In this document: piece by piece, positions 9,217 to 42,673 of the stretch
How positions within the stretch are numbered: position 1 is the stretch's first letter
Layout of the letters: each line of letters begins with the position of its first letter
Position numbers and translations under genes: made by a program
Source: a virus
Direction: 5' to 3' (one strand)
Length of the DNA stretch: 42,937 nucleotides
Virus record (IMG/VR): IMGVR_UViG_3300027770_000097
Location: 1 to 42,937 of that record
The notes under the pieces: model-generated
What the model saw: only the letters and a program-made list of their open reading frames with translations
Told to the model about the DNA's origin: nothing
The model's database searches: none

Positions 9217-9285
9217 ATTACTCCGTAATTATAGCAGGTCTGCAAGGGCATTGGAGGTGTTGTGTGCCAGTTCGGTAAGTGGCAC
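9217..9285 (-). promoter_or_regulatory. Promoter cassette used as coding tail
   Basis: Hairpin GTGCCA...TGGCAC (9,264-9,285) and TGCTATAAT (9,228-9,233) within ATTACGGAGTAAT. The upstream methyltransferase frame has no earlier stop and reads through the hairpin and spacer, stopping in the TAA of TATAAT. Confidence 0.78.
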
Positions 9286-9807
9286 AGTATCTATTAATAA
9301 TTGCCTCATTATGATTTGTTTTGGAAGAAAATTCCAACAATAATAACTACTCGAAAAAGTAATTTTATCATTTGCTCTGCCATCTGGACTTGTAAATTTC
9401 ATTCTCTTATCAAACATCAATAACTGCAAATCTTTATTTTTAAATAATTGTTTTGGGGCACTATCATTCAACCAAGTGTTAGTCATAATCAATGCAAATG
9501 GTTTATTAAAAGACAATGCTTTTTCAAAATATTTGCGTTTATTTGTGAATGGTGGATTGGATACAATTACATCCCAATGAAATGGTTCATAATTAAAGAA
9601 ATCTTGCCCCAAACTAATGTGAGAATAAACTACTTTATTCTTTTTAGAAATTTGTTTTACAAACTGACTCTCTTCAGTATCGAAAGGACACCAGACAACT
9701 ACATCATCAGGAATAAACTCCAAAATAGGAGTTACACCATATTTTGGAGTATAACATTCATCATTATTTCCAGACGAATACATCAATTTTGCACTATCTA
9801 AATACAT
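9229..9807 (-). CDS. Adenine-type DNA methyltransferase
   Basis: The 192-residue protein (start MYLDSAKLMYSS at 9,807; an upstream in-frame GTG at 9,852 is an alternative) contains DECYTPKYGVTPILEFIP, a common opening of phage N6-adenine methyltransferases. It also has CPFDTEESQFVK (about 40-51, SAM-side strand) and the catalytic motif SNPPF at 83-87. It would methylate adenine, or less likely cytosine N4, in DNA. It lies 4 bp downstream of a HNH-type nuclease gene and forms a unit with it. The last 16 or so residues are encoded by the promoter cassette, so the natural C-terminus may have been replaced. Confidence 0.8.
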   Translation of the reverse strand: MYLDSAKLMYSSGNNDECYTPKYGVTPILEFIPDDVVVWCPFDTEESQFVKQISKKNKVVYSHISLGQDFFNYEPFHWDVIVSNPPFTNKRKYFEKALSFNKPFALIMTNTWLNDSAPKQLFKNKDLQLLMFDKRMKFTSPDGRANDKITFSSSYYCWNFLPKQIIMRQLLIDTVPLTELAHNTSNALADLL

Positions 9808-9811
9808 AGAT

Positions 9812-10414
9812 TTACCGATAAAGTTCTGGTTGAGCAAGTGGACATCCTTCACATCCTATCTCAAAATTCCATTCTTTGCATCCAATTTTAAATGATTGAT
9901 TATTTGGTGGAGAATACCGAAGATTAGTATCTTTACATTTTACACATTGTTCTCTTTTATATTGATTATGACTATGCGAAAGAAGTTGAAAATCATCAAT
10001 AGATTGTTTAACAATATTACTAATATATTCGTATTTAGGAGAATCCTTTCTACCCCAACGATGGTCTATTTCTTTGTCTTTCTCTACAAGAGGAATAATA
10101 CAATCTGAAGAAAAATTGGATTTAGTTTGTTTGCGAAGTTCATCAACAATGTCTTTGCGAATACGTTGATTAAAAATAATACTATTATTATATCCAGTAA
10201 GTCTCATTTCTAAAATAGTTCCATTATGACGATTATTAATTCTTTTAAATTCCCAATTGTATTCATTAACACCAAATGCTATACCTCTGCGAACATTTCC
10301 ATTATTTGACCAAGATAAACCCGCATTTATTACATCATCAATAGTTATCCAATTAGAATAACCATCAGAATCTGGTTGAAAAAGATTTACAACTTTTTCA
10401 AGATTAGGTCGCAT
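9812..10414 (-). CDS. HNH-type endonuclease, probable restriction enzyme
   Basis: The 200-residue protein has EIDHRWGR at 115-122, DFQLL at 141-145, N150 and K153-R154, the order seen in HNH (beta-beta-alpha-Me) restriction endonucleases. It also has a Cys cluster (C157, C160, C179, C188, C191) that could bind zinc. The N-terminal half (TIDDVINAGLSWSNNGNVRRG) may recognise DNA. Its stop is 4 bp before a DNA methyltransferase gene, and both lie between two promoter cassettes. This order argues for a restriction-modification-like pair rather than a homing nuclease. Cleavage specificity cannot be read from the sequence. Confidence 0.75.
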   Translation of the reverse strand: MRPNLEKVVNLFQPDSDGYSNWITIDDVINAGLSWSNNGNVRRGIAFGVNEYNWEFKRINNRHNGTILEMRLTGYNNSIIFNQRIRKDIVDELRKQTKSNFSSDCIIPLVEKDKEIDHRWGRKDSPKYEYISNIVKQSIDDFQLLSHSHNQYKREQCVKCKDTNLRYSPPNNQSFKIGCKEWNFEIGCEGCPLAQPELYR

Positions 10415-10424
10415 AAAATTTTTT

Positions 10425-10527
10425 TATTACTCCGTAATCATAGCACACTCAAATCAGATTCGTAGAGTCCTTGTACCAGTTCTTCAAGTGGCACAAGGCA
10501 CAAAAAAAGAGGGTATAAAACCCTCTG
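10425..10527 (-). promoter_or_regulatory. Cassette: terminator, GAACTGG element, TATGAT
   Basis: Terminator AGAGGG-TTTTATA-CCCTCT plus TTTTTTT (10,502-10,527) lies directly after the tmRNA. It is followed by GTGCCAC...CTGGTAC and TGCTATGAT (10,437-10,442) with ATTACGGAGTAAT. It ends tmRNA transcription and starts the nuclease/methyltransferase unit. Confidence 0.82.
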
Positions 10528-10529
10528 TA

Positions 10530-10727
10530 TTTTTAATTCGTCAGAGTTCTACACCAAAGAAGGTGCAGAAGTCCTCGAAAATGCAACAATGTTGTTTGCG
10601 TTTGTTTTCTTGTCCCGTCAACAGATAAAACCTTTATGCCCCGTCGAAACCTAGCATCCCCAAGTAATGGAGATGGGGGTAATTGAAACCCCGTCCGAAA
10701 CATTAGAATTTTTATCCTCTTGGACAA
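10530..10727 (-). ncRNA. ssrA: Circularly permuted (two-piece) tmRNA
   Basis: Read on the minus strand, the acceptor piece comes first: GAGGAT...TTTCGGAC, then a T arm GGGGT-TTCAATT-ACCCC (10,676-10,692), then CATCTCC (10,669-10,675) and discriminator A (10,668). After a 6-nt spacer comes GGGGATG (10,655-10,661), which pairs with CATCTCC through seven base pairs (one G-T). Then comes the tmRNA D-loop signature TAGGTTTCGACGGGG. The tag frame (10,549-10,599) encodes ANNIVAFSRTSAPSLV and TAG. Trans-translation RNA rescues stalled ribosomes and tags their products. The permuted order and the ANNIV start match tmRNA of marine Synechococcus and Prochlorococcus. The C-terminus lacks the usual -AA. 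CCA is not encoded, and outer ends are approximate. Confidence 0.92.
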
Positions 10728-10801
10728 TGGAAGATATCGGACTCGAACCGATGACTTCATCCTTGCAAAGGATGCGCTACTACCAACTGAGCTAATCCCC
10801 C
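10728..10801 (-). tRNA. tRNA-Ala(TGC)
   Basis: Acceptor GGGGGAT/ATCTTCC with two G-T pairs, anticodon loop TTTGCAA (TGC), T loop TTCGAGT, A73. Its 3' end abuts the tmRNA acceptor piece, so both probably come from one transcript. CCA is not encoded. Confidence 0.92.
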
Positions 10802-10806
10802 TTATT

Positions 10807-10880
10807 TGGTGGCAGACCGAAGAATTGAACTCCGTCCCATAGGTTATGAGCCTATTGTGCTACCTTTACACTCGTCTGCG
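10807..10880 (-). tRNA. tRNA with CAT anticodon (Met, possibly initiator-like)
   Basis: Anticodon loop CTCATAA, acceptor CGCAGAC/GTCTGCC with an unpaired C1-C72, A73 and a CCA encoded in the DNA. A mismatch at 1-72 is an initiator feature, but the anticodon stem ATAGG/CCTAT lacks the three G-C pairs of initiators. An elongator Met or lysidine-modified Ile tRNA remains possible. Confidence 0.82.
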
Positions 10881-10904
10881 TTGAATGAAGTCTTATGACT
10901 TCAA

Positions 10905-10976
10905 CTCCGAGTGTCAGAATCGAACTGACCTATAACAAATTAACAGTTTGCTCCCGCACCTTGCGGGCTACTCGGA
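10905..10976 (-). tRNA. tRNA-Asn(GTT)
   Basis: Acceptor TCCGAGT/ACTCGGA, anticodon loop TGTTAAT (GTT), T loop TTCGATT, G73. The D arm is unusual, with an internal CCCGC...GCGGG pairing. Confidence 0.88.
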
Positions 10977-10986
10977 ATGAAAAAGT

Positions 10987-11154
10987 TTAAACTCTATGTT
11001 CTAGAATATACTCTACAGTAGTTGCTACATCATTCATAGCAACACGCAAATCTGGTTGTTGTCCTGACTCTTGCTTGATGATTAAATTGGAATCATCAGT
11101 CAATGTCCAACGCCATTGCTTCATACACTCACAATACCAGAGTTTAATGTTCAT
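10987..11154 (-). CDS. Hypothetical protein within the tRNA cluster, 55 aa
   Basis: MNIKLWYCECMKQWRWTLTD... ends in an amphipathic helix (MNDVATTVEYILEHRV). Two Cys and three Trp near the start suggest a compact fold. It overlaps the upstream gene at 11,144 and sits between tRNA-Asn and tRNA-Pro. Function unknown. Confidence 0.65.
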   Translation of the reverse strand: MNIKLWYCECMKQWRWTLTDDSNLIIKQESGQQPDLRVAMNDVATTVEYILEHRV

Positions 11155-11299
11155 TTTTAGTTTTTTCTAATTTAATCCAATTAAGAAGAGCATTGACTTC
11201 TGCTCTCTTTGTTTCAGTGAAATCATTACCTTTATTGAAAAGGTAGAAATCTAATGCTTCAATAGCAAGTTCTCGGTCTTGTTGTGAAATAAGTGACAT
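11144..11299 (-). CDS. Helical protein within the tRNA cluster, 51 aa
   Basis: MSLISQQDRELAIEALDFYL, then ETKRAEVNALLNWIKLEKTK, a two-helix pattern. It follows tRNA-Pro and a hairpin. Its 3' end overlaps the next gene by 11 bp. No family recognised. Confidence 0.68.
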   Translation of the reverse strand: MSLISQQDRELAIEALDFYLFNKGNDFTETKRAEVNALLNWIKLEKTKNEH

Positions 11300-11341
11300 A
11301 AAACATAGAGTTTAATACTTGAAGATATTTATTATCTTCAA

Positions 11342-11415
11342 TCCGAGATGCAGGATTCGAACCTGCGACCCTCTGCTCCCAAAGCAGATGCGCTACCAAG
11401 CTGCGCTAATCCCGG
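11342..11415 (-). tRNA. tRNA-Pro(TGG)
   Basis: Acceptor CCGGGAT/ATCTCGG with one G-T pair, anticodon loop TTTGGGA (TGG), T loop TTCGAAT, A73. Confidence 0.93.
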
Positions 11416-11444
11416 TTATTTTTTAGCAACCTTATGATTGCTAA

Positions 11445-11516
11445 TGGGAACACTTGGATTTGAACCAAGGACTCTCTGCGTGTAAAGCAGATACTCTGCC
11501 ACTGAGTTATGCTCCC
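11445..11516 (-). tRNA. tRNA-Val(TAC)
   Basis: Acceptor GGGAGCA/TGTTCCC with one G-T pair, anticodon loop TTTACAC (TAC), T loop TTCAAAT, A73. Confidence 0.93.
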
Positions 11517-11519
11517 TGG

Positions 11520-11607
11520 CGGAAGTGGTAGGATTTGAACCCACGGAGGCTATTAACCTCGGACGCTTTCAAGGCGTCTGCCATAAACCTGACTCGACCA
11601 CACTTCC
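11520..11607 (-). tRNA. tRNA-Ser(TGA)
   Basis: Class II tRNA with a long variable arm (GAGGTTAATAGCCTC). Acceptor GGAAGTG/CACTTCC, anticodon loop CTTGAAA (TGA), G73. Its acceptor is identical to that of tRNA-Ser(GCT) at 12,588. Confidence 0.93.
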
Positions 11608-11644
11608 ATGTATCAAGTATAGACTATCTATAGAAGATAGTCAA

Positions 11645-11718
11645 CACCTTCTGCAAGATTCGAACTTGCAACCTCATTCTTCGTAGGAATTTGCTCTATC
11701 CAGTTGAGCTAAGAAGGT
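11645..11718 (-). tRNA. tRNA-Arg(ACG)
   Basis: Acceptor ACCTTCT/AGAAGGT, anticodon loop CTACGAA (ACG; A34 would need host TadA editing to inosine), T loop TTCGAAT, G73. Confidence 0.9.
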
Positions 11719-11722
11719 AAGG

Positions 11723-11794
11723 CGAAGGATGAAAGATTTGAACTTTCACTAATGGTTTTGGAGACCATCGTGCTACCAATTACACTAATCCGAC
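11723..11794 (-). tRNA. tRNA-Trp(CCA), imperfect acceptor
   Basis: Anticodon loop CTCCAAA (CCA), T arm GAAAG-TTCAAAT-CTTTC, G73. The acceptor GTCGGAT faces ATCCTTC, leaving mismatches at positions 2-71 and 3-70, so the molecule may be weakened or edited. Confidence 0.82.
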
Positions 11795-11815
11795 AAGTTT
11801 GGATATAAAATCCAA

Positions 11816-11889
11816 TGCCCCAGGGGAGACTCGAACTCCCAGAATTTTGCTTCTAAGGCAAACACGGTTACCAATTACGTCACCGGGGC
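11816..11889 (-). tRNA. tRNA-Leu(TAG) with short variable loop
   Basis: Acceptor GCCCCGG/CTGGGGC with one G-T pair, anticodon loop CTTAGAA (TAG), T loop TTCGAGT, A73. The variable region is only 5 nt (class I), whereas leucine tRNAs normally have a long arm. Its 5' ten bases overlap the end of the HNH gene. Confidence 0.85.
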
Positions 11890-12326
11890 TTTTTATTATT
11901 TTTCCCAGAATTGGTGTCCGTTTGTGCGTGACAATTTGGACAAACAATTCTAAGATTGCTTAATTCATTATTGTAATGATTACCGTCAATATGGTCAAGT
12001 TCTATTGGAACCTTTTGTCCCATCCATTCAGTAATATTACACAATTCACATTTATGTTCTTTCATACCATCACGAATCATTTTTAATTTTAATTTGTGTG
12101 CAGAAACAAATGAACCTTTGATATAGTCCAAAGCTTGAACATATTTTGTATTTATTTTTTTGCCCTTTAATCCTTTATTTCCATTATATGTAATTCCAAA
12201 CTTTTTCAAATAACTCTCTAAAGTTTCAGGTTTACATTTCAACTCTCTACACATAAAAGACTTAGACTGATTTTCGTCAATCCAATTTAAAATTTCTTGT
12301 CTTCTATCAATAATATCTTTTCTCAT
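11880..12326 (-). CDS. HNH homing endonuclease
   Basis: 148 residues. The C-terminal HNH module has CELC (93-96), ELDHIDG (109-115), N120, and NLRIVCPNCHAQT (124-136), giving two Cys pairs for zinc and the catalytic His/Asn. The N-terminal part (KPETLESYLKKFGITYNG) looks like a helix-turn-helix for DNA binding. Its own TATAAATA late promoter stands 30 bp upstream. The last codons (Pro-Arg-stop) double as the 5' acceptor of tRNA-Leu. It is likely a selfish element sitting in the tRNA array. Confidence 0.87.
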   Translation of the reverse strand: MRKDIIDRRQEILNWIDENQSKSFMCRELKCKPETLESYLKKFGITYNGNKGLKGKKINTKYVQALDYIKGSFVSAHKLKLKMIRDGMKEHKCELCNITEWMGQKVPIELDHIDGNHYNNELSNLRIVCPNCHAQTDTNSGKNNKKPR

Positions 12327-12355
12327 ATTAATCCCTAAAATTAGTATACATAATA

Positions 12356-12363
12356 TATTTATA
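12356..12363 (-). promoter_or_regulatory. T4-type late promoter TATAAATA
   Basis: Perfect motif 30 bp before the HNH gene. The context TTCTATAAATA equals that before the GIY-YIG gene at 1,038. Confidence 0.7.
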
Positions 12364-12384
12364 GAAAATAAGTATTACAATTCT

Positions 12385-12441
12385 TGGTAGGGCACAGAGA
12401 ATCGAAATACAAGTATGTATACCAATTCCATCAATCGGGCA
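12385..12441 (-). pseudogene. tRNA remnant lacking anticodon arm
   Basis: A D-arm-like GATGGAATTGGTATACAT is followed directly by a T-arm-like TTTCGATTCTCTG, then GTGCCCT-A-CCA with encoded CCA. The anticodon arm is missing and the ends (GCCCGAT, GTGCCCT) do not pair. It looks like a deletion or fusion relic of two tRNA genes. Confidence 0.4.
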
Positions 12442-12451
12442 GGATTAACTT

Positions 12452-12475
12452 AATCCCGTGGAAATCAACGGGATT
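12452..12475 (-). repeat. Inter-tRNA hairpin AATCCCGT/ACGGGATT
   Basis: A perfect 8-bp inverted repeat without a T run lies just upstream of the tRNA remnant. It is one of at least nine hairpins in the spaces of the cluster. Confidence 0.55.
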
Positions 12476-12478
12476 AAA

Positions 12479-12549
12479 AGTGTCTAGTCAGAATCGAACT
12501 GACGATAAAAGTTTTGCAGACTCTTGCCTTACCACTTGGCGACAGACAC
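12479..12549 (-). tRNA. tRNA-Cys(GCA)
   Basis: Acceptor GTGTCTG/TAGACAC, anticodon loop CTGCAAA (GCA), T loop TTCGATT, and T73 as expected for cysteine. Confidence 0.92.
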
Positions 12550-12555
12550 ATATTA

Positions 12556-12580
12556 AACTACCGAGGATTACTCGGTAGTT
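12556..12580 (-). repeat. Inter-tRNA hairpin, 10-bp stem
   Basis: AACTACCGAG pairs perfectly with CTCGGTAGTT around a TAATC loop, between tRNA-Ser(GCT) and tRNA-Cys. Only a short T stretch follows, so it is probably for processing or stability rather than termination. Confidence 0.6.
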
Positions 12581-12587
12581 GAAACAA

Positions 12588-12676
12588 CGGAAGTGGTTGG
12601 ATTTGAACCAACGGTATCAATTACTTGATACGGAATCTTAGCAGGATTCTGCAATAAGCCTCTCTGCCACACTTCC
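12588..12676 (-). tRNA. tRNA-Ser(GCT)
   Basis: Class II tRNA with variable arm GTATCAAGTAATTGATAC. Acceptor GGAAGTG/CACTTCC, anticodon loop CTGCTAA (GCT), G73. Confidence 0.93.
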
Positions 12677-12710
12677 AATGTTGTCTTGAAGCAACCCATA
12701 AGGGTTTTAT

Positions 12711-12726
12711 GTTGCCCGAAGGCAAC
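12711..12726 (-). repeat. Inter-tRNA hairpin with TTCG tetraloop
   Basis: GTTGCC-TTCG-GGCAAC, a very stable UUCG-capped stem, lies between tRNA-Ile and tRNA-Ser(GCT). A second GCAAC/GTTGC pairing overlaps it. Confidence 0.6.
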
Positions 12727-12728
12727 AA

Positions 12729-12800
12729 TAGGAATACCCAGATTTGAACTGGAATCTATCGGTTATCAACCGATTGCTCTAACCATTGAGCTATATTCCT
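12729..12800 (-). tRNA. tRNA-Ile(GAT)
   Basis: Acceptor AGGAATA/TATTCCT, anticodon loop TTGATAA (GAT), T loop TTCAAAT, A73. Confidence 0.93.
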
Positions 12801-12804
12801 AAGG

Positions 12805-12877
12805 TGGGAACTGGTGGACTTGAACCACCCACACAAGGTTCTTCAAACCTTTGCTCTACCAGATGAGCTAAGTTCCC
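12805..12877 (-). tRNA. tRNA-Phe(GAA)
   Basis: Acceptor GGGAACT/AGTTCCC, anticodon loop TTGAAGA (GAA), T loop TTCAAGT, A73. Confidence 0.92.
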
Positions 12878-12880
12878 AAA

Positions 12881-12952
12881 TACTCCATAGCAGAATTGAA
12901 CTGCTGTTGCCTGGATGAAAACCAGATGTCCTAACCACTAGACGAATGGAGC
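12881..12952 (-). tRNA. tRNA-Glu(TTC)
   Basis: Acceptor GCTCCAT/ATGGAGT with one G-T pair, anticodon loop TTTTCAT (TTC), T loop TTCAATT, A73. Confidence 0.92.
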
Positions 12953-12999
12953 ATAATGCTGACGGCATTCTGGTTTATCTTTCCAGCGCAAATCAGCAA

Positions 13000-13071
13000 C
13001 GACCCTAACGAGATTCGAACTCGTGATTCTTCTTAGACAGAGAAGTATGATAACCACTTCATCATAGGGTC
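13000..13071 (-). tRNA. tRNA-Asp(GTC)
   Basis: Acceptor GACCCTA/TAGGGTC, anticodon loop CTGTCTA (GTC), T loop TTCGAAT, G73. Confidence 0.92.
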
Positions 13072-13075
13072 AAGG

Positions 13076-13164
13076 TGGGAGAAGAGGGAATTGCACCCCC
13101 AACGGTTCTTATGTAACAGTTTTACAGACTGCCGCCACACATATCTAATAGTAGCCTTTCTCCC
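13076..13164 (-). tRNA. tRNA-Tyr(GTA)
   Basis: Class II tRNA with a long variable arm. Acceptor GGGAGAA/TTCTCCC, anticodon loop CTGTAAA (GTA), A73. The T loop reads TGCAATT rather than TTC, an unusual change. Confidence 0.88.
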
Positions 13165-13196
13165 AATAGATAAGTTTAATGACTTTCTAGGTCAAG

Positions 13197-13271
13197 TGGG
13201 ACATCTGGGATTTGAACCCAGGACTAACCGATTAAAAGTCGGATACTCTGACCGGACTGAGTTAATGTCCC
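13197..13271 (-). tRNA. tRNA-Lys(TTT)
   Basis: Acceptor GGGACAT/ATGTCCC, anticodon loop CTTTTAA (TTT), T loop TTCAAAT, A73. It is the first tRNA of the cluster in transcription order. Confidence 0.93.
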
Positions 13272-28745: not shown

Positions 28746-30890
28746 CTAGGCGACCAGTTCCACAAAGGAAGAAAGAACTTTCTTGTTGGTCTTTTTGTTC
28801 TTTAGCATCTTGGTAAATGCAGATTTGATAGCAGTTTTAGAAGCACCACTATCTACATTCAGGTCTGCATCAGAACTCATACTGGTAGAAGATAGTACAA
28901 AGAACTTATCAAACCCAGAATTACTGAAAGACACAAACTTATTCTTACGAAACTGTTCTTTGATGGCATCATAAGAAACACTTTTATCACCAAACCAGTT
29001 ATAACAATTACTAAGTTCTTTGGTAGGAGCAACACGAAAGTTGATTAGATTTACATTCGGGAACATATCCTTGGTGTAAGTCATTAGAACTTTCACAAAA
29101 TCGGGAAAAGAGCAATAATTATATGCTGGATACATACGACCATTCTTACGATTACGAATAATTGTTTCGTTTGAATGTCTATAAGTAACAAACTCTTCTC
29201 CACTGTGTTGTTTTTTGATTACTCCGTGAGGACATACTCTTCCTTCACCATCAGTCAAAAATACTACATTTACCTTTTGTACTTTATTCAAAGAAATGAA
29301 CTGTGGAATGAGTTGATTGAGAGCAATCATAGTTTCACCCAAAGGAGTACCTGAAAGGTTCATATGACTTGGAACATAACCATACCTGGTTTGATAAGCA
29401 GTACAGATTGCCCAAACAGTTTTGAGTTGCTTTTCCAGTTCCTGATTATTCACTTTACTGGTGAATAGATTCATCAAACGAAATGATGGTTCTGGGCATA
29501 ATACATTTGCTTTTCTTTCAGTAGTTGGAGTATGCGTTGGGTCAAATTCCAAATAAGCATTTGTATCTTGTGTAAAGGCATAAACCTCAAAAGGAATATT
29601 TACTTTACGGCAGAACCAAATCAAACTCAATAGTTGCTTATAAGTATCCAACATATAATCAGCCATTGACCCAGACCAATCAAGAATAAAAATCAATCCG
29701 TGATTTTTACCATCAGGTATTACTGATACTTTCTTGAACAAATCTTCATTATACTTATAGGTATGAAGAAGAGATGTATTTAAAATACCAGTACGAGCAG
29801 TTGTAGAACGAGCATAAGCATCTGCTGATTTCTTACACTCAAACTCCTTTACCAGATAAGAAACTTCACGTTCTGCTGATTTCTTGAACTCATTATAAAA
29901 AACTACTTGACTTTCATAATAAGATTTATGAATAGATTGCTCATAATACCTACGAGCAAGACGATGAACATACTCATTCGGAAGAACAAGTTTGCTCAAA
30001 TCAAACTCTGGAAGTTCAACATAAGCAGTATAATCATCAGTATATTTGTTTTCATTCAGTTGCTTTGATTTTTCGTCAAAAGACCTTGATGTTTTTGACT
30101 CCAGTTCATTGACACTATCTCTACCACCAACTTCATCTGGTTTTGCTCCACCACTCGCATTAGATTGAGTTGGTGTTGATTGTGATTGACCAGATTTATC
30201 TTCGGCATTCTCATTGTCATCGTTAGGTTCTTCATTCTCACCTACACCCTCTTCGCTTTGGTTATTATCACCCTGTTGTTGATTACCAGAACCAGATTGT
30301 TGATTTCCAAGTTCAGGCATACTTTGAGTTTCTTCTTTCTTCTTCTCTTTTACATAATCTACCAAATCTTGTGAAATCTCAAGTACATCCTGAAAAGTTT
30401 CAGCAAGGCTAATACGAGTTAGAAACTCTTCTTCTACATCATTGAACTGAATATTATGAAACGCACCAATCTTGAAGTAAAGATTGATACGGTCAATCAA
30501 ACTCATCTCATCAAGATTTTCGCCATTAGTACAGAAAAAATCATCAGCATTCAGTTCATTATAACCAATATAGAATGTCTTAGAAAGTCCAGCATACTTC
30601 TTCTTCATCAGACGTTCTATACGAGCATCTTCTAATACATTTACTACATCTTTTGGTACTTTTGGATAATCAAGAGTCCAATCAATATTATCTGTAAAAA
30701 GTGCGTGTCCTACTTCGTGAGCAACTAAAAGGTCATATACAGTACCACTTGCCTTTTCCCAGTTAGGAAGAGTTAGAACACGACGTTCTACATCAAACAT
30801 CGCAGTTTCAGTATTCTTATGTTCAATAATCAGATTTTCTGTTGCTAGACATTTAGCAAGCATTCCCTTGACTTCTTTGTTGACCGCCAT
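28746..30890 (-). CDS. cobT: CobT-like VWA protein with HEVGH motif
   Basis: 714 residues. Near the N-terminus is HEVGHALF (H58, E59, H62) followed by NVLEDARIE (E87), which together look like a zinc metallopeptidase or metal site. A low-complexity Gln/Asn/Glu/Asp/Ser linker spans about 187-285. The VWA domain has the MIDAS motif DWSGSM at 404-409 and a later threonine in SGTPLGET. T4-type cyanophages carry this as the cobT/VWA peptidase, paired with the AAA+ gene directly downstream. The pair probably remodels or cleaves a specific target protein. Promoter cassettes flank it. Confidence 0.88.
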   Translation of the reverse strand: MAVNKEVKGMLAKCLATENLIIEHKNTETAMFDVERRVLTLPNWEKASGTVYDLLVAHEVGHALFTDNIDWTLDYPKVPKDVVNVLEDARIERLMKKKYAGLSKTFYIGYNELNADDFFCTNGENLDEMSLIDRINLYFKIGAFHNIQFNDVEEEFLTRISLAETFQDVLEISQDLVDYVKEKKKEETQSMPELGNQQSGSGNQQQGDNNQSEEGVGENEEPNDDNENAEDKSGQSQSTPTQSNASGGAKPDEVGGRDSVNELESKTSRSFDEKSKQLNENKYTDDYTAYVELPEFDLSKLVLPNEYVHRLARRYYEQSIHKSYYESQVVFYNEFKKSAEREVSYLVKEFECKKSADAYARSTTARTGILNTSLLHTYKYNEDLFKKVSVIPDGKNHGLIFILDWSGSMADYMLDTYKQLLSLIWFCRKVNIPFEVYAFTQDTNAYLEFDPTHTPTTERKANVLCPEPSFRLMNLFTSKVNNQELEKQLKTVWAICTAYQTRYGYVPSHMNLSGTPLGETMIALNQLIPQFISLNKVQKVNVVFLTDGEGRVCPHGVIKKQHSGEEFVTYRHSNETIIRNRKNGRMYPAYNYCSFPDFVKVLMTYTKDMFPNVNLINFRVAPTKELSNCYNWFGDKSVSYDAIKEQFRKNKFVSFSNSGFDKFFVLSSTSMSSDADLNVDSGASKTAIKSAFTKMLKNKKTNKKVLSSFVELVA

Positions 30891-33540: not shown

Positions 33541-33570
33541 TAGTAATAATGTAGTTTGAGTTATTTATCC
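33541..33570 (-). promoter_or_regulatory. Late-like leader GATAAATAACTC
   Basis: GATAAATAACTC with the next 18 bp up to the start codon is repeated at 40,847-40,876. The TAA inside is the stop of the upstream repeat protein. It resembles TATAAATA with G at the first base. Confidence 0.55.
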
Positions 33571-35829
33571 TACTGGTGTGTTGGAGGTTGCTGCTAAATA
33601 TGCTCTTGCAGCACTTAATGGACCTCTTGGTGATGCTGTTGCAGAATCATTAGAGAAATCTATACGGTCTACTTTTGCTGTTGCAAAACCACCACCAAAC
33701 CAACCATAATTAGAGTTCCCTGTTGCTGTTAATCCATCTGTTGGTGAACTTAGTGGACCTCTTATTGATGCTGTTGCAGAATCATTAGAGAAATCTATAC
33801 GATCTACTCTTGCTGATGGTCCAGGTTGTCCACCACCAAACCAACCATAGTTAGAGTTTCCTGTTGCTGCTAAATTATATCTTGCTAAACTTAATGGACC
33901 TCTTGGTGATGCTGTTGCTAAATCATTAGAGAAATCTATACGGTCTACTCTTGAGATTGTTTCAATAGTACCATTAGGGCTAGTACCTCCACCAAACCAA
34001 CCATAGTTAGAGTTTCCTGTTGCTGCTAATTCTTCTTTGCTTGAACTTGGTACTGCCGAAATATTTAATGAACCTCTAACTAATGCTTTTGCAGAATCAT
34101 TAGAGAAATCTATACGGTCTACTGGTGCTGATGGTAGTGGAGAAGCAGAACAAAACCAACCATAGTTAGAGTTTCCTGTTGCTGCAAACAACCATCTTTC
34201 TGAACTTAATGGACCTCTTACTGATGCTGTTGCATTATCATTAGAAAAATCTATACGTTCTACTGATGAAAATAGAGGAAAATTTGATAGTGTTATAACC
34301 CCACCACCAAACCAACCAAAGTTAGAGTTTCCTGTTGCTGCAAATTGTCGTCTTCCTGTTAAAAATCCACCTCTTGGTGATATTGCCGATAAGTCGTTAG
34401 AAAAATCTATACGTTCTATTGTTGTAATTGATAAAGGAAATGGTGGTGGAGAAGGTGAAGGTGATCCACCACCAAACCAACCATAATTCCCTGCTTTTTG
34501 TAGACGAATACTTGAAGACCTTGCTTGTCCTGATGTTGCTGCCGAATTATATTTTGCGGAACTTAATAGACCTCTTGGTGATGCTGTTGCAGAATCATTA
34601 GAGAAATCTATACGGTCTACTGTTGATGCTGATACACCAGGAGCAGGAGCACCACCACCAAACCAACCATAATTGGAATTTCCTGTTGCTGCTAGTCTAA
34701 GTCTTGCTAAACTTAATGGACCTCTTACTGTTGCTGTTGCTAAATCATTAGAGAAATCTATACGTTGTACTGTTGATGATATTGCTGGAAGAATACCACC
34801 ACCACCAAACCAACCAAAGTTGGAGTTTCCCGTTGCTGCAAGATGTCGTCTTGCTAAACTTAATGGACTTCTTGGTGATGCCGTGGAAGAATCATTAGAG
34901 AAATCTATACGGTCTACTGTTGATACTACTGGAGATCCACCACCACCAAACCAACCGTAATTAGAGTTTCCTGTTGCTGCTAAACTATATCTTGCTGAAC
35001 TTAATGGACTTCTTGGTGATGCCGTAGAAGAATCATTAGAGAAATTTATACGGTTTACTGTTGAAAATACTGGAAGTGCTGGATTTATACCACCACTAAA
35101 CCAACCATAATTAGAGTTTCCTGTTGCTGCAAGAAAATATCTAGCAGAATTTAATGAACCTCTTATTGATGTTGTGGAAGAATCATTTGTGAAATCTATA
35201 CGGTCTACTGTTGATGTAATTGCAGGCGCGGAAGTTACACCACCACCAAACCAACCATAGTTGGAGTTTCCTGTTGCTGCAAATTGTCGTCTTCCTGAAC
35301 TTAGAAAACCTCTAATATTTGCAGTTCTAGTATCATTTGAAAAATCTATACGGTCTACTGTTGAGATGCCAAATCCTGGACTTTCACCACCACCAAACCA
35401 ACCGTGAGTTTGAGCACTACTCCAAATGGTATTAGTAACTTGAGTATCACTTACTAAAATCACTCTACCAGTTGTGGTAATACCAGCAGTTACAGAACCA
35501 ACATAACCAGTAGTTGCATAAGAAACTGTTGTTGTTCCTGCAAATCCTGTGACTACAAAAGTTCCATTATATCCAGTAAATGCTACACCAGTAGAACTGG
35601 AAAGACCAGAAACTGCGATCTTGGTGCCCGTATAAAAAGGTGTTGTAGAAAGACCAGCAGCAGTTGAAAGAGTGAGAGTTGCAATACCAGCAGTAGTATT
35701 TAAAACTCCACTCACAACAGTAATACCAGCACCAGCAGCAGTGGAATTGATACCTATTGTAGAAACAACAACAGGATTTGATTTGGTAAGAAAAATACCA
35801 TCTAGCCCAAATACATCTCCTGCTGGCAT
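33565..35829 (-). CDS. Repeat protein A: twelve GWFGGG/RIDFSND repeats
   Basis: 754 residues. A Thr/Gly-rich N-terminal domain (about 1-145, starting MPAGDVFGLDGIFLT) is followed by exactly twelve repeats of about 45 residues. Each has N-Y/F-GWFGGG, a variable loop, (T)VDRIDFSND, R-G-P-L-S and an AATGNS end. After repeat 6 comes the linker ATSGQARSSSIRLQKAG. This arrangement predicts two six-bladed beta-propellers in tandem. Such repeats occur in marine phage structural proteins, so a tail-fibre or adhesin role is likely. AAGGAG stands before the start. Oxygenase and sulfotransferase genes follow it. Confidence 0.83.
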   Translation of the reverse strand: MPAGDVFGLDGIFLTKSNPVVVSTIGINSTAAGAGITVVSGVLNTTAGIATLTLSTAAGLSTTPFYTGTKIAVSGLSSSTGVAFTGYNGTFVVTGFAGTTTVSYATTGYVGSVTAGITTTGRVILVSDTQVTNTIWSSAQTHGWFGGGESPGFGISTVDRIDFSNDTRTANIRGFLSSGRRQFAATGNSNYGWFGGGVTSAPAITSTVDRIDFTNDSSTTSIRGSLNSARYFLAATGNSNYGWFSGGINPALPVFSTVNRINFSNDSSTASPRSPLSSARYSLAATGNSNYGWFGGGGSPVVSTVDRIDFSNDSSTASPRSPLSLARRHLAATGNSNFGWFGGGGILPAISSTVQRIDFSNDLATATVRGPLSLARLRLAATGNSNYGWFGGGAPAPGVSASTVDRIDFSNDSATASPRGLLSSAKYNSAATSGQARSSSIRLQKAGNYGWFGGGSPSPSPPPFPLSITTIERIDFSNDLSAISPRGGFLTGRRQFAATGNSNFGWFGGGVITLSNFPLFSSVERIDFSNDNATASVRGPLSSERWLFAATGNSNYGWFCSASPLPSAPVDRIDFSNDSAKALVRGSLNISAVPSSSKEELAATGNSNYGWFGGGTSPNGTIETISRVDRIDFSNDLATASPRGPLSLARYNLAATGNSNYGWFGGGQPGPSARVDRIDFSNDSATASIRGPLSSPTDGLTATGNSNYGWFGGGFATAKVDRIDFSNDSATASPRGPLSAARAYLAATSNTPVG

Positions 35830-37577: not shown

Positions 37578-39410
37578 TTATCCTATTGGTGTGTTGGAGG
37601 TTGCTGCCAAATATCCTCTTGCTGAACTTAATGGACCTCTTGGTGATGCTGTTGCGGAATCATTAGAGAAATTTATACGGTCTACTGTTGCTACTGCAGG
37701 AAATCCACCACCAAACCAACCATAATTAGAGTTTCCTGTTGCTGACAATCTACCTCTTGGTGAACTTAATGGACCTCTTTGTAATGCTGTTGCGGAATCA
37801 TTAGAGAAATCTATACGGTCTACTGTTGCTACTGCAGGAAATCCACCACCAAACCAACCATAATTAGAGTTTCCTGTTGCTGCTAAATGCCTTCTTGCCG
37901 AACTTAATGAACCTCTTATTAATGATGGTCCAGTAACAGTATCATTAGAGAAATCTATACGGTCTACTGTTGCTACTGGTCCAGGTTGTCCACCACCAAA
38001 CCAACCATAGTTAGAGTTTCCTGTTGCTGCTCCTCTATATCTCGAAGAACTTAATAAACCTCTTGGTGATGCTGTTGCTAAATCATTAGAGAAATCTATA
38101 CGGTCTACTGTTGCTACTGCAGGAAATCCACCACCAAACCAACCATAATTAGAGTTTCCTGTTGCTGCTAATGAATCCCTTCCTACACTTAATGGACCTC
38201 TTATTGATGCTGTTGCTGAATCGTTAGAGAAATCTATACGGTCTACTCTTGCTACTGGTCCAGGACCACCACCACCAAACCAACCATAATTAGAATTTCC
38301 TGTTGCTGTGAAATCAGTTCTTGCCGAACTTAATGAACCTCTTATTAATGATGGTCCAGTAACAGTATCATTAGAGAAATCTATACGGTCTAATGTTGCT
38401 ACTGCAACTGTAGTAAACCCCCCACCAAACCAACCATAATTCCCTGCTTTTTGTCTGCGAATATTGAGAACTCCTGAGGTTGCTGCTAATCTTATCCTTG
38501 CTTGACTTAATGCACCTCTTGGTGATAGTATTGGAGTATCATTAGAAAAATCTATACGTTCTACCGTTGCTAATGGTCCAGGAGCACCACCACCAAACCA
38601 ACCAAAGTTAGAGTTTCCTGTTGCTGCCAATCTATCTCTGGACGAACTTAATGGACCTCTTGCTATTGCTGTTCTAGTATCATTAGAGAAATCTATACGG
38701 TCTAATATTACTGAACCAATACTATCACCACCAAACCAACCATAGTTAGAGTTTCCTGTTGCTGCTGATAAATTTTTTGATGAACTTAATGGTCCTCTAA
38801 CTGATGCCGTGGAAGAATCATTTGAGAAATCTATACGGTCTACTGTTGCACTAAACCAACCATAATTGGAGTTTCCTGTTGCTGATAAACCAGTTCTTCC
38901 TAAACTTAATGGACCTCTTGGTGATGCCGTGGAAGAATCATTAGAGAAATCTATACGTTCTACTGTTGATACTGCTCCTGGAGTACCACCACCACCAAAC
39001 CAACCATAATTAGAGTTTCCTGTTGCTGCTAATTGTTGTCTTGCTAAACTTAATGGACCTCTTTGTGATGCTGTTGCGGAATCATTTGAGAAATCTATAC
39101 GGTCTACTGTTGATTGTATTGCTGGTGTTGCATTAGCACCCCCACCAAACCAACCATAGTTAGAGTTTCCTGTTGCTGCTAAATATCCTCTTGCGGAACT
39201 TAACGGTCCTCTTGCTGTTGCTGTTGCTAAATCATTAGAGAAATCTATACGGTCTACTGTTGCTACTGCTGATGGTGTTCCCAGAGCACCCCCACCAAAC
39301 CAACCATAATTCGCAACGGATTCTTTATTCAACCAATCACCAGTCAGTCTTGACCCTCTTGCTTCATTAAGAGTAAATGCTCCAAATATATTGTTATTAT
39401 TGATTGTCAT
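37578..39410 (-). CDS. Repeat protein B: twelve GWFGGG/RIDFSND repeats
   Basis: 610 residues. A short start (MTINNNNIFGAFTLNEARGS) is followed by twelve repeats like those of protein A, broken after the sixth by ATSGVLNIRRQKAG. Several repeats are almost identical at DNA level (for example the GFPAVATVDRI copies), which implies recent duplication or conversion. It ends AATSNTPIG, as A ends AATSNTPVG. It lies between sulfotransferase B and the glycosyltransferase fusion. Confidence 0.83.
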   Translation of the reverse strand: MTINNNNIFGAFTLNEARGSRLTGDWLNKESVANYGWFGGGALGTPSAVATVDRIDFSNDLATATARGPLSSARGYLAATGNSNYGWFGGGANATPAIQSTVDRIDFSNDSATASQRGPLSLARQQLAATGNSNYGWFGGGGTPGAVSTVERIDFSNDSSTASPRGPLSLGRTGLSATGNSNYGWFSATVDRIDFSNDSSTASVRGPLSSSKNLSAATGNSNYGWFGGDSIGSVILDRIDFSNDTRTAIARGPLSSSRDRLAATGNSNFGWFGGGAPGPLATVERIDFSNDTPILSPRGALSQARIRLAATSGVLNIRRQKAGNYGWFGGGFTTVAVATLDRIDFSNDTVTGPSLIRGSLSSARTDFTATGNSNYGWFGGGGPGPVARVDRIDFSNDSATASIRGPLSVGRDSLAATGNSNYGWFGGGFPAVATVDRIDFSNDLATASPRGLLSSSRYRGAATGNSNYGWFGGGQPGPVATVDRIDFSNDTVTGPSLIRGSLSSARRHLAATGNSNYGWFGGGFPAVATVDRIDFSNDSATALQRGPLSSPRGRLSATGNSNYGWFGGGFPAVATVDRINFSNDSATASPRGPLSSARGYLAATSNTPIG

Positions 39411-40846: not shown

Positions 40847-40876
40847 CAGTAATAATGTAGTTTGAGTTATTTATCT
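40847..40876 (-). promoter_or_regulatory. Late-like leader GATAAATAACTC, second copy
   Basis: Nearly base-for-base repeat of the leader at 33,541-33,570, again overlapping the stop of a repeat-protein gene. Confidence 0.55.
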
Positions 40877-42673
40877 GGTGCTGTTGGAGGTTGCTCTTAG
40901 AAGAGCTTTTGGAGATCCTAATGGACTTCTGGATGATGCTGATACCAAATCATTAGAGAAATTTATTCTCTCTACATCCGCAACATACGGAAATCCACCA
41001 CCAAACCAACCATAGTTGGAGTTTCCTGTTGCTGCGAGAGTTGATCTTTGAATACTTAAATTACCTCTGTCTAATGTTTTTTCTAAATCATTTAAAAAAT
41101 TTATCCTAAACATAGAATTGGCTCCACCAAACCAACCATAGTTGGAGTTTCCTGTTGCTGCTAAATCACCATTAGCAGAACCCAATGAACCTCTTGGTGA
41201 TATTGCTGCTAAATCATTAGAGAAATCTATACGGTCTACTGTTGCTAGTGCTGCGAAAGGTAATGTAAATCCACCACCAAACCAACCATAGTTAGAGTTT
41301 CCTGTTGCTGCAGCAGCATATCTTGCGGCACTCAATGGACCTCTTGGTGATATTGCTGCATTATCATTAGAAAAATCTATACGGTCTACTGCTAGTATTG
41401 GTCCAGGAATACCACCAGCAAACCAACCATAGTTAGAGTTTCCTGTTGCTGCTAATGAAGTTCTTTCTATACTTAATGAACCTCTTGGTGATGCTCTTGA
41501 AGAATCATTTGAAAAATCTATACGGTCTACTGTTGATACTCTTGTTGATGGTGTAGTTTGTCCACCACCAAACCAACCATAGTTAGAGTTTCCTGTTACT
41601 GCCAAACCACCTATTCCTGGTGAAGTTAATGAACCTCTCGGTGATATTGTTGCCAAATCATTTGAGAAATCTATACGGTCTACTGTTGATACTCTTGTTG
41701 ATGGTGCAGTTTGACCACCACCAAACCAACCATAATTCCCTGCTTTTTGCAGTTTGATTGCTGGTCCTTTTGCTTGTCCTGATGTTGCTGTTGATCCTTG
41801 CAATGAGGATGAAACTCTAACTGATGCTGCTCCAGTATCATTGGAGAAATCTATACGATCTATGTTTGATCTGAAAAACCATCCGTAATTAGAGTTTCCT
41901 GTTGCTGCTGATTGGATTTCGGATACACTCAATGAACCTCTGACTGATGCTGCTGCCAAATCATTGGAGAAATCTATACGCTCTATTGTTGATAATGGTC
42001 CAGGAGTACCACCACCAAACCAACCATAATTAGAATTTCCTGTTGCTGCTAAATTACGTCTTGCTAAACTTAATGAACCTCTTACTGATACTGTTGATAA
42101 ATCATTAGAGAAATCTATACGGTCTACTGTTGCTACTGCTGGAGGACCACCACCACCAAACCAACCATAATTAGAGTTTCCTGTTGCTGCTACACCATAT
42201 CTTGCCGAACTTAATGGACCTCTTGGTGATGTTGTTCCAGAATCATTAGAGAAATCTATACGGTCTACTACAGAATGCAATACTGCCGGAAATGGGAAAG
42301 GTACTTGTCCTCCTCCCCACCAACCATAGTTAGAGTTTCCTGTTGCACGTACACCATCTCTTTTTTGGGATAGTGTTGCTCTTGGAGAATATCCTGAAGA
42401 ATCATTTGAAAAATCTAAACGGCTTATTGCTGATTGAGCTGGAAAAGTAGTACCAAACCAACCATAGTTAGAGTTTCCTGTTGAAGCACCAAAATTTGAA
42501 GGAGCAGTACTTGTAAATAATGTTTTTGTCGAATCATTTGAAAAATCAATACGAGTTAGTGAAACATTAGCACCATCAACACCAACAAACCAACCGTGAG
42601 TATTGGTAGTACTCATCACCTCAAGTCTTTTTAGTTTATAAGCAACTTGTAGACCAAATACTCCAATAGCCAT
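40871..42673 (-). CDS. Repeat protein C: twelve GWFGGG/RIDFSND repeats
   Basis: 600 residues. A short start (MAIGVFGLQVAYKLKRLEVM) is followed by twelve repeats, more diverged than in A and B, with the linker ATSGQAKGPAIKLQKAG after the sixth. Repeat 6 (FFRSNIDRID) and repeat 11 (GANSMFRIN) have short loops. It begins 2 bp after the partial glycosyltransferase gene and leads the whole decoration run. Confidence 0.83.
   Translation of the reverse strand: MAIGVFGLQVAYKLKRLEVMSTTNTHGWFVGVDGANVSLTRIDFSNDSTKTLFTSTAPSNFGASTGNSNYGWFGTTFPAQSAISRLDFSNDSSGYSPRATLSQKRDGVRATGNSNYGWWGGGQVPFPFPAVLHSVVDRIDFSNDSGTTSPRGPLSSARYGVAATGNSNYGWFGGGGPPAVATVDRIDFSNDLSTVSVRGSLSLARRNLAATGNSNYGWFGGGTPGPLSTIERIDFSNDLAAASVRGSLSVSEIQSAATGNSNYGWFFRSNIDRIDFSNDTGAASVRVSSSLQGSTATSGQAKGPAIKLQKAGNYGWFGGGQTAPSTRVSTVDRIDFSNDLATISPRGSLTSPGIGGLAVTGNSNYGWFGGGQTTPSTRVSTVDRIDFSNDSSRASPRGSLSIERTSLAATGNSNYGWFAGGIPGPILAVDRIDFSNDNAAISPRGPLSAARYAAAATGNSNYGWFGGGFTLPFAALATVDRIDFSNDLAAISPRGSLGSANGDLAATGNSNYGWFGGANSMFRINFLNDLEKTLDRGNLSIQRSTLAATGNSNYGWFGGGFPYVADVERINFSNDLVSASSRSPLGSPKALLRATSNSTR

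What the first reader, a model, noticed from the sequence alone, without database searches (positions are those of the whole stretch)
10530..10727. Phage-encoded circularly permuted tmRNA
The minus strand holds a complete permuted ssrA gene: acceptor piece (GAGGAT...TTTCGGAC, T arm, CATCTCC-A), a 6-nt spacer, then GGGGATG, GGTTTCGACGGGG and a tag frame. The two ends pair over seven base pairs. Permuted tmRNA is the form of marine Synechococcus/Prochlorococcus, so the phage carries its host's architecture. The spacer of 6 nt between acceptor and 5' end is very short, so maturation must be unusual. A strong terminator follows.
Basis: partly seen in the sequence, partly recalled or inferred. Interest (0 to 1): 0.85.

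Follow-up and report, generated by a model that had tools for sequence, protein, structure and literature searches.

The report
Cyanophage split tmRNA, altered degradation tag
A virus of photosynthetic cyanobacteria carries its own two-piece ribosome-rescue RNA; that kind of gene is already known, but in this virus and many relatives the short tag it adds to unfinished proteins no longer ends in the alanine pair ('destroy me') used by every sampled host, and usually ends in valine, which suggests these viruses rescue ribosomes while softening the destruction signal.

Summary
The gene is real. Window 10719-10537 (-) holds a complete circularly permuted tmRNA: RF01851 82.6 bits, RF04321 80.3 bits, ARAGORN tag ANNIVAFSRTSAPSLV*. 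It closes an 18-tRNA array, before a terminator, in a T4-like cyanomyovirus contig. Phage two-piece tmRNA is published (PMC9004378). The 6-nt spacer is ordinary: 59 of 117 host genes sampled have exactly 6 nt. What is unusual lies elsewhere. (1) All 117 host tags end in Ala-Ala; only 10 of 49 distinct cyanophage-type tags do, and 26 of 49 (this one included) end in Val; of other viral permuted tags 0 of 57 end in Val. The Val label changes at least 5 times on a tree built without the tag end. (2) This gene has no room for downstream pseudoknots; it and its allies end in an extended, covarying helix H5. (3) It is a mosaic: 5' part 95% like one phage group, 3' part 94-96% like another. Best reading: a working ribosome-rescue RNA with a changed, probably weakened, ClpXP degron. 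Rescue is well supported by anatomy; weakening is inferred and untested.

The parts
10668..10719 (-). Acceptor piece of the two-piece tmRNA: 3' strand of H2 (GATAAAA 10716-10710), T arm, acceptor strand CATCTCC (10675-10669), discriminator A10668; CCA not encoded
   Evidence: covariance model alignments RF01851 and RF04321
10662..10667 (-). Intervening spacer TTACTT, 6 nt, presumably removed in maturation
   Evidence: 6 nt is also the commonest length in host genes
10537..10661 (-). Coding piece: 5' acceptor strand GGGGATG, D-loop-like GGTTTCGACGGGG, 5' strand of H2 (TTTTATC 10630-10624), tag frame, helix H5
10549..10599 (-). Tag reading frame, 16 residues plus stop: ANNIVAFSRTSAPSLV*; ends Leu-Val instead of the host's Ala-Ala
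10537..10579 (-). Extended helix H5 carrying the stop codon, motif X-A-GGA-C-stem / stem-C-UCU-GA-X', in place of downstream pseudoknots
   Evidence: covariation over 8 phage types, 48 of 48 cells paired, 4 of 6 pairs change on both sides; fold; stop to terminator only 22 nt
10508..10526 (-). Rho-independent terminator (7-pair stem, T run)
10728..10801 (-). tRNA-Ala (TGC) immediately upstream, ends 8 nt before the acceptor piece; probably in the same precursor RNA
   Evidence: co-transcription inferred
10810..13271 (-). Rest of the tRNA array upstream of the tmRNA (tRNA-Met 10810-10880 found by Rfam only), interrupted by an HNH endonuclease ORF 11880-12326

Best explanation
The gene makes a working two-piece tmRNA at the end of a tRNA precursor. 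Host tRNA enzymes would cut out the 6-nt spacer and add CCA; host alanyl-tRNA synthetase would charge it through G3-U70; host SmpB would bring it to ribosomes stalled on broken mRNA. It then codes a 16-residue tag that ends in Leu-Val rather than Ala-Ala. I infer that the change weakens ClpXP degradation, so the phage gets its ribosomes back without sending every rescued product quickly to the host protease. Shown here: the gene, its parts, the host/phage difference in tag ends, its recurrence, and the mosaic structure. Inferred: transcription, maturation, charging, rescue, and the effect on degradation.
For: Full-length hits to two covariance models and ARAGORN. Acceptor stem with G3-U70, H2 pairing, resume codon and stop inside H5 all kept. 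Tag ends: hosts 117/117 loci Ala-Ala; cyanophage-type distinct tags 26 Val, 22 Ala (only 10 Ala-Ala), 1 Leu; other viral permuted tags 57/57 Ala. Fisher test on distinct tags, Val end versus other viral tags: p 1.5e-11, ignoring shared ancestry. Recurrence: at least 5 label changes forced by well-supported branches, 9 by parsimony, on a tree of the 5' module only. Val is kept while its codon varies (GTT, GTA, GTG, GTC) and while the preceding Leu codon varies (CTA, CTT, TTA, TTG), and in different RNA contexts: paired in H5 in some groups, apparently unpaired in others (by inspection), which argues for the peptide rather than the RNA. One family keeps host-like ...SAPVA and changes only the last residue. 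In enteric bacteria ssrA tags ending AAV or ASV are degraded more slowly than LVA and only by ClpXP (PMC11003136); the ssrA tag is read at its terminal LAA (PMC3968760).
Against: No expression data. Weakening by a terminal Val is known only for enteric ClpXP with an E. coli tag; cyanobacterial ClpX was not tested. Some cyanophage tags still end Val-Ala-Ala, so the change is not universal. Distinct tags share ancestry, so the Fisher value overstates the evidence. The tree rests on 176 short columns.
Confidence: 0.55

Rival explanations
1. An ordinary phage tmRNA that adds to the host's pool; Val-ended tags are as good a degron for cyanobacterial ClpX as Ala-Ala, and the difference has no functional meaning.
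For: All rescue parts are intact. Some relatives keep VAA. Slow degradation of AAV/ASV tags in enteric bacteria is partial, not absent (PMC11003136).
Against: If Ala-Ala and Val were equal, hosts would be expected to show Val too; none of 117 does.
Confidence: 0.2
2. Neutral erosion: the phage needs only ribosome release, so the tag end is free to drift, and C-to-T change turns Ala codons into Val codons.
For: GCN to GTN is one transition; the penultimate residue varies (L, A, T, S); downstream pseudoknots were also lost in some groups.
Against: Free drift should also give Thr, Ser, Pro, Gly, Asp or Glu at the last position. Of 27 distinct tags not ending in Ala, 26 end in Val and one in Leu, with synonymous changes at the Val codon.
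Confidence: 0.13
3. The tag is redirected to another protease or adaptor, host or phage, that prefers a terminal Val.
For: Val is conserved rather than random.
Against: None of the window ORFs that were scanned matched an adaptor or Clp protein; not all ORFs were scanned, and the contig is a fragment.
Confidence: 0.09
4. A non-functional remnant, integration site or host contamination.
For: Genomic islands often use tmRNA genes as integration sites (PMC11915505).
Against: The gene is complete, sits in a phage tRNA array on a cyanomyovirus contig, occurs in many viral contigs with preserved pairing, and no sampled host gene is close.
Confidence: 0.03

Closest known systems
Two-piece tmRNA genes of marine phages (Melnitz, Mosig, Prochlorococcus phage AG-345-P14; PMC9004378)
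   Same: Phage-encoded, circularly permuted, aquatic phages; AG-345-P14 is of the same cyanobacterial type
   Different: Melnitz tmRNA is of alphaproteobacterial type and linked to a glutamine riboswitch; that paper's text does not discuss tag sequences. The AG-345-P14 tag ends ATA, not Val
Cyanobacterial two-piece tmRNA (RF01851; Prochlorococcus, Synechococcus, Cyanobium)
   Same: Gene order, T arm, H2, GGTTTCGAC motif, tag start ANNIV/ANKIV, short spacer
   Different: Host tags end VAA or IAA without exception in the sample; stop to terminator about 49-58 nt where a terminator was called, against 22 nt here
S-CRM01 tmRNA (freshwater Synechococcus phage, NC_015569; not annotated as tmRNA in the record)
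   Same: Same type, same H5 motif with compensating changes
   Different: Tag ANNVVKFRRTAVTSLVAAL ends in Leu after an internal LVAA
Engineered ssrA degron variants AAV and ASV (PMC11003136)
   Same: Terminal Ala replaced by Val
   Different: Laboratory variants of the E. coli tag, tested in enteric bacteria, not natural phage tags

Membership tests
Two-piece (circularly permuted) tmRNA, RF04321 / RF01851 | Score above the curated cut-off of the family model | tested here: met
   80.3 bits vs 47 (RF04321) and 82.6 vs 70 (RF01851), both full length
Two-piece (circularly permuted) tmRNA, RF04321 / RF01851 | Acceptor piece before coding piece, separated by a spacer | tested here: met
   spacer TTACTT
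Two-piece (circularly permuted) tmRNA, RF04321 / RF01851 | Seven-pair acceptor stem with G3-U70, T arm, GGTTTCGAC loop, H2 pairing | tested here: met
Two-piece (circularly permuted) tmRNA, RF04321 / RF01851 | Tag frame with Ala resume codon and stop codon inside H5 | tested here: met
Two-piece (circularly permuted) tmRNA, RF04321 / RF01851 | Transcribed and matured into two paired RNAs, alanylated, SmpB-bound | not testable with these tools
   no RNA data; no SmpB in the contig, as expected if the host supplies it
Host-type proteolysis tag (ssrA degron) | C-terminal Ala-Ala | tested here: not met
   ends Leu-Val; hosts 117/117 Ala-Ala
Host-type cyanobacterial tmRNA architecture | Pseudoknot region between H5 and the terminator | tested here: not met
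   22 nt from stop to terminator, most of it the 3' strand of H5; not a defining feature of tmRNA as such, since pseudoknot number is reduced in two-piece tmRNAs (PMC3968760)

The most novel reading that the evidence does not exclude
Cyanophages have repeatedly rewritten the end of the trans-translation tag (Ala-Ala to a terminal Val), uncoupling ribosome rescue from rapid proteolysis during infection; the tag end and H5 behave as a module that is swapped between phages.
Probability: 0.42. Interest if true: 0.75.

Novelty: new variant of a known kind. Interest (0 to 1): 0.5.

Why it matters
tmRNA is usually described as coupling two jobs: freeing the ribosome and condemning the product. If many cyanophages keep the first and change the second, that shows which job a virus needs, gives natural degron variants to test, and predicts altered protein turnover in infected cells of very abundant aquatic bacteria. 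It also points to unannotated tmRNA genes in well-known isolates.

Tried and rejected
Unusual maturation from the short spacer: rejected, 6 nt is common in hosts. Recent capture from a host: rejected, no sampled host gene is close and hosts form their own clade. SmpB on the contig: none. A regex test for the pseudoknot proved too narrow (it missed plain cases), and the simple crossing-stem search is noisy where a terminator follows closely; only the stop-to-terminator distance is used. Mycobacteriophage tmRNA records tried by accession are not held; I recall that some of their tags also end in valine, but this is untested. A scan for one-piece viral tmRNA found only ALAA-type ends, many probably at prophage borders; Bacillus phage G ends QVA. 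The first genome contigs pattern was too strict and found nothing.

Full report
What is there. On the minus strand, 10719 down to 10537, lies a complete circularly permuted tmRNA gene. Both cyano_tmRNA (RF01851, 82.6 bits) and the merged permuted model (RF04321, 80.3 bits) match over their full length, and ARAGORN independently calls a permuted tmRNA with tag ANNIVAFSRTSAPSLV*. The acceptor strands GGGGATG and CATCTCC form seven pairs with the G3-U70 wobble that alanyl-tRNA synthetase reads (established knowledge); H2 forms between 10716-10710 and 10630-10624. A strong terminator follows at 10526-10508. The window holds 18 tRNAs (17 by ARAGORN; tRNA-Met 10810-10880 by Rfam only), most of them in the array that this gene closes.

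Whose it is. The contig is a 42.9-kb fragment of a T4-like cyanomyovirus: its peptidase (28746-30890) matches 463 phage records, nearly all phages of Synechococcus, Prochlorococcus or other cyanobacteria, best 46% to Synechococcus phage DSL-LC02; a CobS-like gene is also present (phrog_249; the CobS reading is mine). A second IMG/VR contig is identical over the 11.6 kb fetched (L039).

Not new as a kind. Phage-encoded two-piece tmRNA is published: PMC9004378 reports 53 among public phage genomes, 50 of them from marine or aquatic samples. Scans here found cyanobacterial-type permuted tmRNA in about a hundred viral loci, including isolates S-CRM01, S-CAM1, S-CAM3, S-SSM7 and Sf-FS3, where the public annotation shows no tmRNA or a hypothetical protein over it.

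The spacer is ordinary. In 117 host genes (Prochlorococcus, Synechococcus, Cyanobium and relatives) the spacer runs from 5 to 55 nt and is exactly 6 in 59.

The tag end is not ordinary. All 117 host loci end Ala-Ala. Among 49 distinct cyanophage-type tags, 26 end in Val (ALV, SLV, TLV, FLV, VAV, QTV, ATV, VSV), 22 in Ala but only 10 in Ala-Ala, one in Leu. Among 57 distinct permuted tags of other types in viral contigs, 57 end in Ala and 52 in Ala-Ala. The scan patterns put no constraint on the tag end. The frame is secure: the resume codon and the following ANNIV/ANKIV are shared with hosts, and in one family the tag is host-like up to the last residue...SAPVAV against ...TAPVAA.

Selection or drift. 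Of 27 distinct tags that do not end in Ala, 26 end in Val. The Val codon varies (GTT, GTA, GTG, GTC), as does the Leu codon before it (CTA, CTT, TTA, TTG). The Val codon lies in different RNA contexts in different groups (inspection). On a tree of the 5' module, which excludes the tag end, hosts form one clade (98/91) and the Val label needs 9 changes, at least 5 of them forced by well-supported branches. Counts cannot tell gain from loss. I read this as repeated, peptide-level change, not yet as proof of it.

What it would do. The E. coli tag is read by ClpX at its terminal LAA (PMC3968760), and variants ending AAV or ASV are degraded more slowly, and only by ClpXP, in enteric bacteria (PMC11003136). 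By analogy the phage tag would be a weaker degron. This step is inference; I found no test of such tags with cyanobacterial ClpX.

A reduced 3' module. In this gene only 22 nt separate the stop codon from the terminator stem, against about 49-58 nt in hosts where a terminator was called, leaving no room for a downstream pseudoknot. Instead H5 is long, with a conserved internal motif (X-A-GGA-C / C-UCU-GA-X') shared by the SLV, QTV and TAVAV groups and S-CRM01. On eight types all 48 pair cells form, four of six pairs change on both sides, and no slid version comes close. The arms were cut out and joined by hand before counting, and were chosen because they pair, so the test leans towards the structure. 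Pseudoknot reduction is known for two-piece tmRNAs (PMC3968760).

A mosaic. The 5' module of the window gene is 95% identical to L006 (tag ANKIVAFSRQTALV) but the 3' module only 54%; against L045 and L015 (tags ...PSLV) the 3' module is 94-96% and the 5' module 84-85%. Longer alignments to several contigs stop at window 10577-10585, inside the tag frame. So the tag end plus H5 appears to have been exchanged as a unit; both source groups end in Val.

Limits. No transcript, no proteolysis data, a fragmentary contig, short sequences for trees, shared ancestry in the counts, and a paper library limited to open licences: that no earlier report of Val-ended cyanophage tags was found says only that none is in that library.

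Noticed in passing
window 9812-10414 (-): ORF directly downstream of the tmRNA terminator matches Pfam ICEA (PF05315, E 4e-28); a DNA methyltransferase-like ORF overlaps it at 9229-9852 (phrog_799).
   Followed up: no
window 11880-12326 (-): HNH endonuclease ORF inside the tRNA array, possibly a homing endonuclease.
   Followed up: no
window 10810-10880 (-): tRNA-Met found by Rfam (48.5 bits) but missed by ARAGORN.
   Followed up: partly
L337, L338, L339, L340 (around position 600): tmRNA genes in isolates Sf-FS3, S-SSM7, S-CAM1 and S-CAM3 are unannotated or lie under hypothetical proteins in the public records.
   Followed up: partly
L018, L027, L056, L074, L078 and similar: Another cyanophage group has tags lengthened at the front (for example ANTSDSA-ANNIVAFSRSTVAA) or in the middle, so the tag varies in several ways.
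   Followed up: no
window 33565-35829, 37578-39410, 40871-42673 (-): Three large related ORFs (phrog_19111, unknown function) with a glycosyltransferase, a 2OG-Fe(II) oxygenase and a sulfotransferase nearby.
   Followed up: no
L362 1501-1809: Bacillus phage G one-piece tmRNA tag ends QVA, also not the usual LAA.
   Followed up: no
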